NCBI RefSeq assembly: GCF_921293095.1
Contig: NC_060251.1
Span: 42,203,644-42,267,643, forward strand
DNA from: Ischnura elegans
Taxonomy: Eukaryota; Arthropoda; Insecta; Odonata; Coenagrionidae
Length of the DNA: 64,000 bases
Reading direction: 5' to 3'
Shown here: piece by piece, positions 18,101 to 24,100 of the stretch
Layout: each line of letters begins with the position of its first letter
How positions within the stretch are numbered: the first letter of the stretch is position 1
Notes under the pieces: model-generated
What the model was told of the DNA's origin: nothing
The model's input: the letters and a program-made list of their open reading frames with translations, nothing else
The model's database searches: none
Position numbers and translations under genes: made by a program

Positions 18101-21100
18101 TATCTTAGCTAGGAATTTACTTTGAGATAAACAACACTATTATTCAATCCTTTCAATTTTTATTTGTTTCAAATTATTCCTTATTTACTGGGCATGCCAG
18201 CAGCATTAAACCTTCAAAATTATAAAGTTTGTTCTTTATCAAAGTGTTTTTCATCTCTCATCATATGAAAGATCTCTGTATAAAGTACTTACTATAGTAT
18301 TAAGAATTATTTGTACCTTAAATGCTTAGACGAATTAAACTGTATGAAAGTAGTCTTTGATGTCAGACTTAACGGTTGCATTATTTCTTTTTCAGAATAA
18401 TGTTTTTCCTCAGCCTCCTGCCTTCATTTTTCTCATTGATGTTTCTTATAACAACATAAAATCTGGAATGGTGCAGCGTCTTTGCCAGGAAATGAAAGGA
18501 ATTCTCAAACTTTTACCAAAGGAATATGGTGCTGAGAAGTCATCCATGAAAGTTGGCTTCATTACATACAACAACACAGTTCATTTCTATAATATTAAGG
18601 TAAGAATGGCTTTCCTTTCAAACGATGGCATATTAACTAAATTCATGGTCATATATATAGTTGCATGCTTAACTTAACTAATTCTTTAGGGAACTTGCAG
18701 AGAAATATTAGACAAAAAACCATTGTGTATCTAATTAAATGAAGGTTAGCTTAGATGTTCCGACGCACAAGTTTAAATGGTGGTTTCTTTTTCATTATAT
18801 ATGGTAAATATCTAGCTGGCTCTTTCGGAAATGGTTAAGAATTGGTACACCTCATAGAGTCACACAAGAGACTGAACTTATTTCATAATATGTATATGGT
18901 TAACTCTCGATAAGACGACGCAGGATACAGTAAAACTTTGATATTAAACAGTTGGAGGGACCTATATAAGGGCACTGTGTAAAATCAAGAGTGGCTATTG
19001 AGGAGGAGTATGCTTTTTAGGATAACACTTGCTCATTATTTTTAGAACGCTTCATCGTCCAATTTTGTATAGTTCTGATTTATGGGAATACAGTAGACCT
19101 CACTTATGAAACTTGGCGGTCCCGGCAAAAAGCCTATGTTAAATACATGGTGCTATTGGATAATACAAAGTTTTGAAAATACGAAATGTTTTGAAATTAT
19201 GAACATCGGGCTCGGTCCCCAGGGGCAAATGGAATTTGGTTATATGAACTGCGGCAAAAAATTTGTCAACAAAACTAGTTATGCCGGTGCAAGTAGCTAA
19301 AAGAAACAGCTCTTCTGACTGTGGTCCATCAAAAGTGTGAAATTGTAAATGATAACACAACTTTGGAGGATAAGGGTTTGCCTAAAAACTTATGGTGGGA
19401 ATCAAGGGGAAGTAGGAGTTCTGTAAATATGTTGTTGGCTTAAGGCCCTTTACCCACCCTTCTTTCTCGTGCTCTCTTCACCTCTCGTTATGCTTGACTA
19501 CAGGCTATCAGGTTATCATGCAGGCAGGTTATGCTTCCTCAAGGAATCCCCATCCTGCTCATATTTATCCTACCAACTGGGAACATTCTCCGACCTAAAT
19601 ACCTAAACGCCATTATGATGATAAAAAAATAGTCTCATGTCTATGCATGTCGCAATTAAAATTAATGAAAAAGTTGACGCCGTATGATCACAATGAAGAC
19701 AACAAAATATACAGCCATCACAAAGCCTCGAACCCTGGTCCCCCGGGTGGTAGCCTTAAACGCAACCACTACCCCACCTGGCCCATCTGCTGAGTGGTGC
19801 GATATCATGGAACTACAACCGGCTTGTGAAAAGTACCGCATGAAAATTAATTAATTACAGCCAAACTAAGGCCCATTCAACGGAACCACTACTAGTTCAG
19901 GGATGTGTTCACCATTCCTAAGGCCATAAAAAATACGGCATTGATAAAGGCAGAGCAAGTTTCGTGGTCTCCCCTTGTGAATCACAGTGAAAATAACTAA
20001 TTAAAAAGATTGTACTTTCACCTGACTATACGGAAGGAACTACAAATATTAATAAACGAAGGTTATTTTGGAAACAGGCGAAGACCCTTGTTTTTTTCTT
20101 TTTTTTCTTGTCACTGAGCGCTAGAGGGTGACATAAATGACAGTTAGGTCGGCTGCCATTTAAATTTCATAGGCATTGGAAACAAATACCTATCTTATGC
20201 GTAGATAATATGTAGTTGCTATTCACTACCGGCCACAAATTTCTTAGATTAAATTCGTTCACAAAAAGTTTCAATTCGTTATTTGATTGTTGTGTAATAT
20301 TTCCAAGCCTGCCGCGTGAACGGCGGTGAAATATACAACAATTGCCATGAGAAAAAATTCCCCTGGACCGGGAATCGAACCACGGACCTTTGGCTTTCCG
20401 GGCCACTGCGCAGACCACTACGCTATCCAGGTTCTTTAATTCTCATGGCAATTATACCGAGGCTCATGGCACTAGGTGTTACATGGCGAGGGCCTAACAC
20501 CTAGTGCCATGAGCCTCGGTATAATTGCCATGAGAATTAAAGAACCTGGATAGCGTAGTGGTCTGCGCAGTGGCCCGGAAAGCCAAAGGTCCGTGGTTCG
20601 ATTCCCGGTCCAGGGGAATTTTTTCTCATGGCAATTGTTGTATATTTCACCACCGTTCACGCGGCAGGCTTAGAAATATTACACATACCGCTTTGCGCGG
20701 CTTTAGCGCAGGTATGAGGCTCTCAACCGGTTGTGTCTTCTTGGAAGTCCTTTCTCCCTCGCGTTGCCATCCTTGATGGACCGCGAGGGCCTAACACCTA
20801 GTGCCATGAGCCTCGGTATAATTGCCATGAGAATTAAAGAACCTGGATAGCGTAGTGGTCTGCGCAGTGGCCCGGAAAGCCAAAGGTCCGTGGTTCGATT
20901 CCCGGTCCAGGGGAATTTTTTCTCATGGCAATTGTTGTATATTTGATTGTTATTTAAAATAGGTGGGAATTTATTTAGTGCTAAGATCGTTGGTTTTTTA
21001 CTATAAATACTCAGAATTTTAGAGTGGTATAATTATTTAATGATCTTTCACAGTGTAAAATCAATAATAAAAACAATTTTCTAAGATTTAGATCGTAAAT

Positions 21101-24100
21101 AACCACTGAAAACATTTAAAAAAAAGGCCACTTAAGACTAAAAGGGGTGGTGGTAACAATAGCAAAAATTTTTTCGTGACTTATTGAAAAGGTTTGAAAT
21201 GACAAAATTCGATTTATATTATGAAGTGCTAATTTTCCAGTTCTGCTGACTTTGTATAATCGAGAGTTTACTGTGCATACGTGTATGAAAATATAGGTTT
21301 TAATGATATTGAATGTATTGCTTTTCAGTCAATTTTAGCGCAGCCGCAAATGATGGTCGTCGGTGATGTTCAAGATATGTTTATGCCTCTTTTGGATGGA
21401 TTTTTGTGTGATCCAGAAGAATCAGCACATGTTATTGATAGCCTAATGGAGCAAATTCCAGCCATGTTTGCAGAAACTAGGGAAACTGAAACAGTTCTAG
21501 CCCCTGCTATCCAGGCAGGTTTGGAAGCATTAAAGGTAGGTAGTCTTAAAAAAGATTTGGTTTTCTGTGGTTAGATGATGGCAAGTGATATTGCTTAAAG
21601 GAAGAGCATTTTCAAACTAAAAAAAAAAACATCTGCATGATATTTTGAAAGGTTAGTACATATTTGTTCATTTGGATTTTTTTGGTGATGTCTTTCCATA
21701 TTTTCTTTCTGATGATACTATAGTATGAACCAATTCATCTCATCAGTTAAAGCTTCATAATACTAAGTCACTGCCATATTGTTTTTTAATGATCATTTTT
21801 TTCATAAAGAAATATCCTTTTCTAGAAATGACATGCACTACCCCTCTAATATTTCAATGCTCTTAACCATTATCTGTGTTGCAAAGAAGTGACTATTCAT
21901 GAATTGCTTGGAAGAATAATTTTATCTTATGTAGCTGCATATTTATATGTAACATGTTATTGGTTCATTGTATTAAATCATTTTTTCTTAGGCTGCAGAG
22001 TGCAACGGAAAATTACTCGTATTCCATTCTTCACTACCCATTGCTGAAGCTCCTGGAAAATTGAAGAATAGGGATGATAGGAAGGTATTGGGAACAGAGA
22101 AAGAAAAATCTGTGCTAGGTAAGCCATTGATTGCGAGCTGTTACGTTTTTGCTAAGCTCACTTGAGTGAGTATAGCACATTGCATAAATGTCATTATAAA
22201 CAGTGATTGGCTGTATGCTGGCATAAGGATATGATGGACATTTAAAAAAATATGGATATAGCGAGGCCAAGAAGTCAACCTTTATCAACCTTACATGAAT
22301 TTTAATTTTAGGTCCCCAGAACAACTACTACAATAATCTCGGACAAGATTGTGTGATGGCTGGGTGTTCTGTTGACTTGTTCATCTTCAACAACTCGTAC
22401 ATTGATTTAGCTACAATTGGCCAAGTGAGTAGGCTCACTGGTGGAGAAATCTTCAAGTACACATATTTTCAGGTAATTTACTTCTCTATTCTTGCTCATG
22501 GTTATATAATTATGGTTATAATTAGTAATTCTAAAAGATTTTTATGCCAATTGAATGAGAGTTTGGAAGTATTTACTCATTATGCCAGTCTAAATAGCTT
22601 TAAAATGAGTCATATTTTTAATCAATAATATTATTTTGTTGTGTTGTATCACCATCAATATTTTATCACGGTCTTAAAAACCCTTAGGCTGATTTGGATG
22701 GTGAGAGGCTCATAGCAGATATTAAACGTGATATTGAGAGGACTGTAGCTTTTGATACTGTGATGAGAGTCCGAACCTCCACTGGTGTCCGAGCAACAGA
22801 TTTCTTTGGTCACTTTTTCATGGCCAACACAACTGACATGGAAATTGCCAGCATTGATTGTGATAAGGTGAGTTACAAACCTAATTTTTTATAGCTTAGA
22901 AATGCATTCTGAATGTGATGAATGATTGTGTAGGTAATTGATCTGCCTGAATGCTAAGTTTTTATGTTGGTGTAAAGATGTCTTATAAGTGGGTAAATTC
23001 ATGCTTTGGGAGAATCAAGTTAGTATCTTAGTGGAGTGAATTTCAATATCCTTTGATGCAAGTATTATTCCTGAGCAGTTTAATTATACTCTATTTATTA
23101 TGTCATCACTCTCGCACAGTATTAGTTTAAGTATTTTTGAGGACTGTGAAGAATTTTCTGTATAACAATTGTATAATTTGCAGTACAGCTCCGATCATTT
23201 CTTTTTTTTTTAATTTTTTATTACATACATTATCTTCTTCAAATGAAGTCATATCACTTAATGCTGATACAATTTAACTATCATTATTGTTGATACTATG
23301 AGAGAATAGAAAATAGTTCATTTCAAGTAAGTTGCATTAAGGAAGGTTGGGCCAGCTTGAAGCTTGTCTGTAATTATCAGGTAATCATTGAGACCAAGGA
23401 TAATAGAATTTCTTCCTTCAGTACCAATTTTCCTCCGACGTTCATCACGGTAAGGTTTGCTCACTTCAATTGGGGTAAGTTTGAAATCACCCCACGCGTT
23501 TGAACAAATACAACCACTAGGGTATACTTTGTAATAACTGACGAAGTCCACATTTTGATTAAGGTGTTTAGGGGAAGGGATATTGAAAGGTTTTCTAATT
23601 TCATATTTTTTAATTGTAATTACGAAGTTTTGAGATGATTGATTGTGATTAGCGGTTGCTGAGATTGTGTCAGTTAGCTGCTATTTTGTACTGGTAAAAT
23701 AAATTGAACACCCACATTTTATGCAATTGATGAAAATCTTAAAATTTTATTCTCAGGGTGTTGCAGTTGAAATTAAACATGATGACAAGCTGACAGAAGA
23801 AGATGGTGTATATGTACAAGTTGCTCTTCTGTACACGTCATGTGGAGGACAAAGGCGGCTGCGAATATTAAACTTGTCTTTAAAAATCTGCACCCAGATG
23901 GCAGACCTCTATAGAAGCTGTGACTTGGATACCATGATTAACTTCTTTTCTAAGCAAAGTAGGTGCCAAGGAAGTTTTTTGCGGCCCATTTTTTGTTCTA
24001 AGTGCTTATTCTGGTTTACTATGTTTCATTTAGTAAATAACACTTTTTTGCCAATTCTGTGGTGTTTTAATATGTTGTTAGGCTGTAGTTGCATTGTATA

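What the first reader, a model, noticed from the sequence alone, without database searches (positions are those of the whole stretch)
20281..20951. Near-perfect 191-bp-arm palindrome with a tRNA-like sequence in each arm, plus a third copy, flanked by an 11-bp direct repeat
The arms 20291-20481 and 20495-20685 differ at about two sites. Each arm carries a tRNA-like core bounded by AATTGCCATGAGA and its inverse. A third copy follows, and ATTTGATTGTT brackets the whole. This suggests a composite tRNA-bearing unit that inserted as one piece, and the low divergence suggests recent origin. Its transcript would form a very long hairpin, a possible dsRNA/siRNA source.
Basis: partly seen in the sequence, partly recalled or inferred. 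Interest (0 to 1): 0.7.

Follow-up and report, generated by a model that had tools for sequence, protein, structure and literature searches.

The report
tRNA-bearing Penelope-type mobile elements
The palindrome is one insertion of a small jumping element, apparently of the blue-tailed damselfly, that carries a tRNA-like sequence and bears the insertion marks of Penelope-like retroelements, a combination I did not find described.

Summary
In detail: a 191-nt-arm palindrome with 2 mismatches, a third identical 162-nt copy and a flanking 12-bp repeat. The genome matches Ischnura elegans. The insert belongs to a dispersed family built from a 297-bp tandem unit with a tRNA-like core (1570 core matches). 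Of 43 sampled clusters, 31 have terminal duplications of 7 bp or more, mostly 12-13 bp (control 43 of 843). In two-sided copies one outer end lies at unit ~160 and the other at ~200 (24 of 28; none with two ends in the same class, though one divergent copy ends at 151/152). Penelope-like elements (PLEs) make such an optional tail, by starting reverse transcription at two adjacent RNA sites (PMC11167929). A resident PLE family shows it in 12 of 13 insertions. Two more tRNA-bearing families were read. The hammerhead core motif is in 28 of 30 PLE-type loci and 0 of 3 tRNA-bearing units. Best reading: a non-autonomous retroelement moved by PLE machinery, probably from circular or multimeric RNA. 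The role of the tRNA part is untested.

The parts
20280..20291 (.). left copy of the 12-bp target-site duplication TATTTGATTGTT
20940..20951 (.). right copy of the target-site duplication; its first bases overlap the last bases of the element (unit ...TATATTT)
20291..20481 (-). inverted partial unit, unit positions 200 to 10; outer end at the long (L, ~200) site
20482..20485 (.). short junction between the inverted and direct parts
   Evidence: sequence
20486..20782 (+). full 297-bp unit
20783..20944 (+). partial unit, positions 1-162; outer end at the short (S, ~160) site
20360..20432 (-). tRNA-like core, copy 1
20544..20616 (+). tRNA-like core, copy 2: Rfam tRNA 48 bits; A-box and B-box like motifs; anticodon loop CCGGAAA
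20841..20913 (+). tRNA-like core, copy 3
20523..20536 (+). 5' strand of the predicted 14-bp stalk that carries the tRNA-like fold (AATTGCCATGAGAA); also 20820-20833, and inverted 20440-20453
20623..20636 (+). 3' strand of the stalk (TTCTCATGGCAATT); also 20920-20933, and inverted 20340-20353
20619..20624 (+). run of six T just 3' of the tRNA-like core (Pol III terminator-like); also 20916-20921, and inverted 20352-20357
   Evidence: sequence
20646..20685 (+). 'tail' segment, unit 161-200, between the two alternative ends; forms most of a predicted hairpin (20638-20683)
20756..20789 (+). predicted hairpin CCCTCGCG...CGCGAGGG; 5' stops of sampled copies cluster beside its two bases (unit 263-270 and 6-15)

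Best explanation
The feature is one insertion of a non-autonomous, tRNA-bearing retroelement mobilised by the machinery of a Penelope-like element (PLE: reverse transcriptase plus GIY-YIG endonuclease). A PLE protein binds an RNA of repeated or circular 297-nt units and nicks both target strands about 12 bp apart. It starts cDNA synthesis from the two nicked strands at two neighbouring internal sites of the RNA (unit ~160 and ~200), one site per strand. Both cDNAs have the same sense and sit on opposite DNA strands, so joining them gives a head-to-head inverted repeat with a 40-nt tail on one end only, between target duplications. Shown here: the family, the tandem unit, the head-to-head rule, the two-site rule, the duplications, and the same marks in a resident PLE family. 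Inferred: use of a resident PLE protein in trans, one start site per strand in the same event, the joining of the two cDNAs, and a circular (or otherwise single-monomer) template. The tRNA-like part on its stalk most likely began as a Pol III promoter; its present role is unknown.
For: Two-site rule: of 28 clusters with an inverted and a direct outer end, 24 have one end at 155-165 (S) and the other at 195-206 (L): 13 S/L, 11 L/S, 0 S/S, 0 L/L, 4 other. By eye one of the 4 (C6:58700959) also reaches a diverged L end. Duplications >=7 bp in 31 of 43 clusters, mode 12-13 bp, against 43 of 843 with mismatched ends. All 28 two-sided clusters are head-to-head; opposite-strand neighbours within 1 kb are head-to-head in 10 of 10 (family 1) and 16 of 16 (family 2) of the places examined. 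Resident PLE family A, with RVT_1 and GIY-YIG in one reading frame, obeys the same rule in 12 of 13 insertions, with duplications of 10-14 bp in 12 of 13 (mismatched-end control >=7 bp: 19 of 156). Published PLE behaviour matches: two adjacent internal start sites, a 30-40-bp optional tail, both strands cleaved and extended (PMC11167929, parts 1-2 of 4); inverted pLTR, 31-bp tail, 8-10-bp duplications in several copies (PMC3846280 passages). Single-monomer origin: at four polymorphic sites 77 of 78 multi-unit observations are uniform within the insertion; shuffling gave about 7 to 14 uniform per site where 16 to 25 were seen. A variant seen in no other sampled insertion occurs in 8 of 8 covering units of C4:36700011.
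Against: No PLE sharing sequence with the 297-bp unit outside the tRNA part was found in 36 GIY-YIG loci or pieces (only weak matches, E 2.1 and 5.5), so the partner is not identified. The tail is about 40 nt here and about 60 nt in family 2, against 34-35 in resident PLEs. 4 of 28 clusters miss the end rule as scored: a divergent copy with nearly equal ends 151/152 (C1:29995550), two copies with one L end and one internal end, and C6:58700959. 12 of 43 clusters lack a duplication >=7 bp. In vitro, the lizard PLE showed no difference in start site between top and bottom strands, so one site per strand is my reading of the genomic pattern, not a published result. Authors of PMC3846280 explain head-to-head copies by self-priming on an antisense template instead. 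Uniform units could come from a homogeneous genomic array rather than an RNA circle. No RNA evidence.
Confidence: 0.86

Rival explanations
1. An ordinary tRNA-derived SINE moved by a LINE; the inverted 5' part is classical twin priming.
For: tRNA-like core with A- and B-box like motifs; duplications of 12-13 bp; head-to-head inversion is also what twin priming makes (recalled).
Against: In twin priming the outer end of the inverted part lies at variable internal sites (recalled); here it is nearly always the other of two fixed sites (24 of 28). A resident PLE family shares this rule. Units are tandem, and I see no poly-A or simple-repeat tail at the ends printed. LINEs of the genome were not searched.
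Confidence: 0.07
2. PLE-mobilised, but the inverted part arises by self-priming on an antisense RNA (as proposed for rotifer Penelope) or by template switching, not by two primers.
For: Proposed by the authors of PMC3846280 for head-to-head copies (passages).
Against: It does not by itself predict that the two outer ends use different start sites (24 of 28).
Confidence: 0.15
3. A DNA foldback or MITE-like element whose inverted arms are terminal inverted repeats.
For: Long inverted arms and target duplications.
Against: Arms are not constant; 15 of 43 clusters have no inverted part, and the point of inversion varies. Units range from under one to about eight. Duplication length is spread over 7-16 bp rather than fixed.
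Confidence: 0.02
4. Satellite-like or extrachromosomal DNA circles reintegrated without reverse transcription.
For: Tandem 297-bp units and uniformity within each insertion.
Against: Fixed outer ends, the two-site rule and regular 12-13-bp duplications point to an endonuclease and primed synthesis.
Confidence: 0.02
5. Assembly artefact (false palindrome).
For: Palindromes are a known assembly hazard (recalled).
Against: The same structure at many sites with different flanks and duplications; the assembly used PacBio long reads (passage).
Confidence: 0.01

Closest known systems
Penelope-like elements (Penelope/Poseidon type, GIY-YIG endonuclease)
   Same: Tandem units, head-to-head inverted 5' part, an optional 30-40-bp tail on one end, target duplications; the same marks in resident PLE family A.
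   Different: A 297-bp non-coding unit; carries a tRNA-like fold on a stalk; lacks the hammerhead core motif present in 28 of 30 PLE-type loci.
Animal (non-LTR) retrozymes
   Same: Non-coding tandem repeats of ~170-400 nt, longer target duplications when present, proposed RNA circle (PMC7229834 passages).
   Different: The defining type I hammerhead motif was not found in 3 of 3 tRNA-bearing units, both strands; a tRNA-like module is present.
tRNA-derived SINEs (SINE2)
   Same: tRNA-like head with internal Pol III promoter motifs; short, non-coding, high copy number.
   Different: Tandem/inverted architecture and two-site ends; T-run directly after the tRNA-like core; no LINE-like tail seen (LINEs not searched).
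Helenus (tRNA-bearing LTR-type TRIMs)
   Same: tRNA-like sequence in a non-autonomous element outside the SINE class (PMC10886601 abstract and passages).
   Different: Helenus has LTRs, PBS, PPT and 4-5-bp duplications; the duplications here are mostly 12-13 bp and the ends follow the PLE rule.

Membership tests
Non-autonomous element of the Penelope-like (EN+) type | two alternative ends ~30-40 bp apart, a tail on one outer end only | tested here: met
   24 of 28 two-sided clusters, 0 S/S or L/L, one divergent copy with ends 151/152; family 2: 5 of 5 chosen insertions, but with about 60 nt between the sites
Non-autonomous element of the Penelope-like (EN+) type | tandem and head-to-head inverted arrangement | tested here: met
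Non-autonomous element of the Penelope-like (EN+) type | target duplications like those of resident PLEs | tested here: met
   mode 12-13 bp against 10-14 bp in 12 of 13 PLE A insertions
Non-autonomous element of the Penelope-like (EN+) type | sequence shared with an autonomous PLE (pLTR or tail); helpful, not strictly defining | tested here: inconclusive
   no convincing match outside the tRNA part in 36 GIY-YIG loci or pieces, out of 2199 first-look candidates; a partner may have been missed
Non-autonomous element of the Penelope-like (EN+) type | mobilised by a PLE protein | not testable with these tools
   inferred from the insertion marks
Animal retrozyme | type I hammerhead ribozyme in each unit | tested here: not met
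   CTGANGA absent on both strands of 3 of 3 units, present with a following GAAA in 28 of 30 PLE-type loci (motif recalled). Rfam scans found none in the units, but they also reported none in the four PLE loci scanned, so Rfam is not a fair control
Animal retrozyme | circular RNA | not testable with these tools
   indirect only: units uniform within an insertion
tRNA-derived SINE | tRNA-like head with A and B boxes | tested here: met
   (box consensus recalled)
tRNA-derived SINE | LINE-like 3' end or simple-repeat tail, mobilised by a LINE | tested here: inconclusive
   no such tail seen at the ends printed; LINEs of the genome were not searched
Functional tRNA-Ser gene | decoding tRNA-Ser (long variable arm, U33) | tested here: not met
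   no long variable arm, and loop CCGGAAA has C at position 33 (alignment; the rules on U33 and the variable arm are recalled)

The most novel reading that the evidence does not exclude
A new class of circular-RNA retroelement in which a tRNA-like fold on a stalk replaced the hammerhead ribozyme of PLEs and retrozymes as the device for cutting or closing the RNA circle, using host tRNA enzymes, with insertion still done by PLE proteins. Three families with otherwise unrelated units keep a homologous tRNA module, the loop CCGGAAA, a following T-run and a paired stalk.
Probability: 0.12. Interest if true: 0.85.

Novelty: new variant of a known kind. Interest (0 to 1): 0.6.

Why it matters
tRNA-bearing parasites are known for LINEs (SINEs) and for LTR elements (Helenus); this would be the PLE counterpart, with thousands of core matches in one insect. 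The two-ended rule lets the unusual PLE start mechanism be read from many natural insertions of a short non-coding RNA, so the RNA signals that PLE proteins need can be tested directly. The absence of the hammerhead core where a tRNA fold is present makes it testable whether multimer or circle formation needs a ribozyme.

Tried and rejected
Hammerhead ribozyme in the unit: not found by motif; Rfam scans gave only tRNA above the gathering score. A twister-like reading of the GCGAGGGCCTAACACC stretch was considered from memory; Rfam gave no support at E<=10 on one locus. Functional tRNA gene: rejected on C33 and the missing variable arm. Shared sequence with resident PLEs: none convincing outside tRNA. 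Exact 33-nt core in viral contigs and genome contigs: 0; neither collection is meant to hold animal genomes. Solved-structure search with a piece of the PLE protein: 0. Literature searches that could have shown a tRNA-bearing Penelope-type element: none among the titles and abstract beginnings shown, which are capped lists; Repbase and most subscription journals are not covered. Passages of PMC8490949 gave nothing bearing on this.

Sampling and scoring limits. L001-L030 are best-scoring matches (40 of 1807 candidates scored) and L031-L060 the first exact matches on C1 in coordinate order, so the sample is not random. The 43 clusters include one 49-bp fragment at a locus edge (C15:8154596) and a few strongly divergent copies; all are kept in the counts. 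Ends are BLAST ends, good to a few bases. In one search I used 70 of the 100 listed family-1 places and 89 of the 100 listed family-2 places. Family 2 was read at 5 insertions chosen because they were two-sided, and their duplications (9-15 bp) have no control. The 13 PLE A insertions come from 15 loci with both ends inside 3.2 kb (two insertions seen twice); L077 is the exception in both calls. The windows 6-15 and 263-270 for 5' stops and the four polymorphic sites were chosen after seeing the data. Family 3 was found with a pattern that demands CCGGAAA and family 4 with one that demands the T-run, so only family 2, found through an Rfam tRNA hit, supports these shared features independently. 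The hammerhead motif count has no chance expectation, and the L069 match lies elsewhere than the others. The match of the genome to Ischnura elegans rests on span, scaffold number and chromosome sizes.

Full report
Observation. The palindrome, the third copy and the flanking repeat are all present as described. The arms differ at two positions, G against A. ARAGORN and Rfam call a tRNA in each of the three copies (48 bits each). The flanking repeat is 12 bp, TATTTGATTGTT. The feature lies, by inference, in an intron 5' of an exon that encodes part of a Sec23/Sec24 trunk domain (window 21329-21535, PF04811, E 5.7e-19; exon borders by eye).

Family. The genome behind the window (1.72 Gb, 110 contigs) matches Ischnura elegans ioIscEleg1.1 in span, scaffold number and chromosome sizes (abstract and passages of PMC9975421). 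A 29-nt piece of the core occurs 1570 times at <=2 mismatches, 0 in the reversed control. The sampled copies are built from a 297-bp unit, often head-to-tail and often with an inverted part on one side. The largest sampled insertion is 2385 bp (C4:36700011), with tandem units on both strands.

Ends. Outer ends lie at unit ~160 (S) or ~200 (L). Of 43 clusters, 28 have both an inverted and a direct part, all head-to-head. Of these, 13 are S/L, 11 L/S, 0 S/S and 0 L/L. Four miss the classes: C1:29995550, a divergent copy with ends at 151 and 152, the nearest thing to equal ends; C4:61288555 and C7:3215681, with one L end and one internal end; and C6:58700959, which by eye reaches a diverged L end and so would fit. 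Duplications of 7 bp or more are found in 31 of 43 clusters, mostly 12-13 bp, against 43 of 843 when left and right ends of different insertions are compared. The duplicated sequence differs from site to site, so it is target DNA. Among listed places with opposite-strand neighbours within 1 kb, 10 of 10 in family 1 and 16 of 16 in family 2 are head-to-head (70 and 89 places used).

Mechanism. A PLE protein from a lizard starts reverse transcription at two adjacent internal RNA sites, cleaves and extends both strands, and the sequence between the sites is the optional 30-40-bp tail of PLE copies (PMC11167929, parts 1-2 of 4 read). That study saw no difference in start site between the strands; that one event uses one site per strand is my reading of the genomic pattern. 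Rotifer Penelope copies carry an inverted pLTR and a 31-bp tail; some have 8-10-bp duplications and some none, and the authors favour self-priming for the inverted copies (PMC3846280, passages). This genome has 149 GIY-YIG matches among 150 scored of 2199 candidates. PLE family A has reverse transcriptase and GIY-YIG domains in one frame. It shows one outer end with and one without a ~35-bp tail in 12 of 13 insertions, with duplications of 10-14 bp in 12 of 13 (control 19 of 156 at >=7 bp). PLE family B shows a similar offset of ~34 bp in the comparison of L064 with L068. The tRNA-bearing family therefore carries the PLE insertion signature. That a resident PLE protein does the work is inference; no PLE with convincing shared sequence was found.

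Template. Within an insertion the units are alike: at four polymorphic positions 77 of 78 multi-unit observations are uniform (25/26, 17/17, 16/16, 19/19). In columns covered three or more times, 16 differ from the family in all units, 51 have a single deviating unit (many in two divergent copies) and 3 are mixed. Each multimer thus appears to derive from one monomer sequence, as copying round an RNA circle would give; a homogeneous genomic array is the alternative. The 5' stops cluster at unit 6-15 (14 of 71, expected 2.4) and 263-270 (9 of 71, expected 1.9), windows chosen after seeing the data, beside the two bases of a predicted stable hairpin. This fits a reverse-transcriptase stop or an RNA end there.

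More families. Family 2 (unit 312-324 bp; 5588 matches of a 22-nt core pattern at <=1 mismatch, control 0) shows the same ends rule in 5 of 5 chosen insertions, with about 60 nt between the sites, and duplications of 9-15 bp without a control. A third has a 476-bp spacing between copies; its ends were not read. A further T-arm type appears. In the three units read, the tRNA-like modules are homologous (80% over 99 nt and 67% over 91 nt against family 3; 73% over 64 nt between families 1 and 2). Each sits on a predicted long stalk whose outer sequence differs between families while pairing is kept; the inner GAGAA is shared by families 1 and 2. All three have the loop CCGGAAA and a T-run of 5-6 just after the core, but family 3 was found with a pattern that demands the loop. 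A T-run there should end a Pol III transcript early (recalled), so the tRNA promoter alone would not readily yield the whole unit.

Hammerhead. The motif CTGANGA...GAAA is present in the 3' part of 28 of 30 PLE-type loci and absent from both strands of the three tRNA-bearing units. Hence the family is not a retrozyme by the defining feature, though it looks and may work like one. In the lizard PLE, hammerhead mutations did not affect insertion in vitro, so losing it need not stop mobilisation.

Verdict. A real, probably recent insertion of a PLE-type, tRNA-bearing, non-autonomous retroelement; a new variant of a known kind as far as my searches show.

Noticed in passing
L098-L102, L068:2810-3216, L004:2722-2948: A second tRNA-bearing family (unit 312-324 bp, 5588 pattern matches) with the same two-ended rule in the 5 insertions read.
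   Followed up: partly
L103:1-551 (C1:50673660-50674210): A third tRNA-bearing family with a 476-bp tandem spacing and a different stalk sequence; its ends were not read.
   Followed up: partly
G000 C1:1060394, C1:21047503, C1:30074414: A further tRNA-like T-arm followed by GGATTTTTTTCTC, possibly a fourth family.
   Followed up: no
L061-L090: At least two PLE families with hammerhead-like core motifs and head-to-head inverted copies; some of the GIY-YIG matches lie in long open frames.
   Followed up: partly
window ~19700-19990 and L096 ~600-800: By eye, another dispersed repeat lies just upstream of the element and recurs at L096.
   Followed up: no
window 21329-21535: Exon with a Sec23/Sec24 trunk domain about 380 bp downstream of the insertion.
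   Followed up: partly
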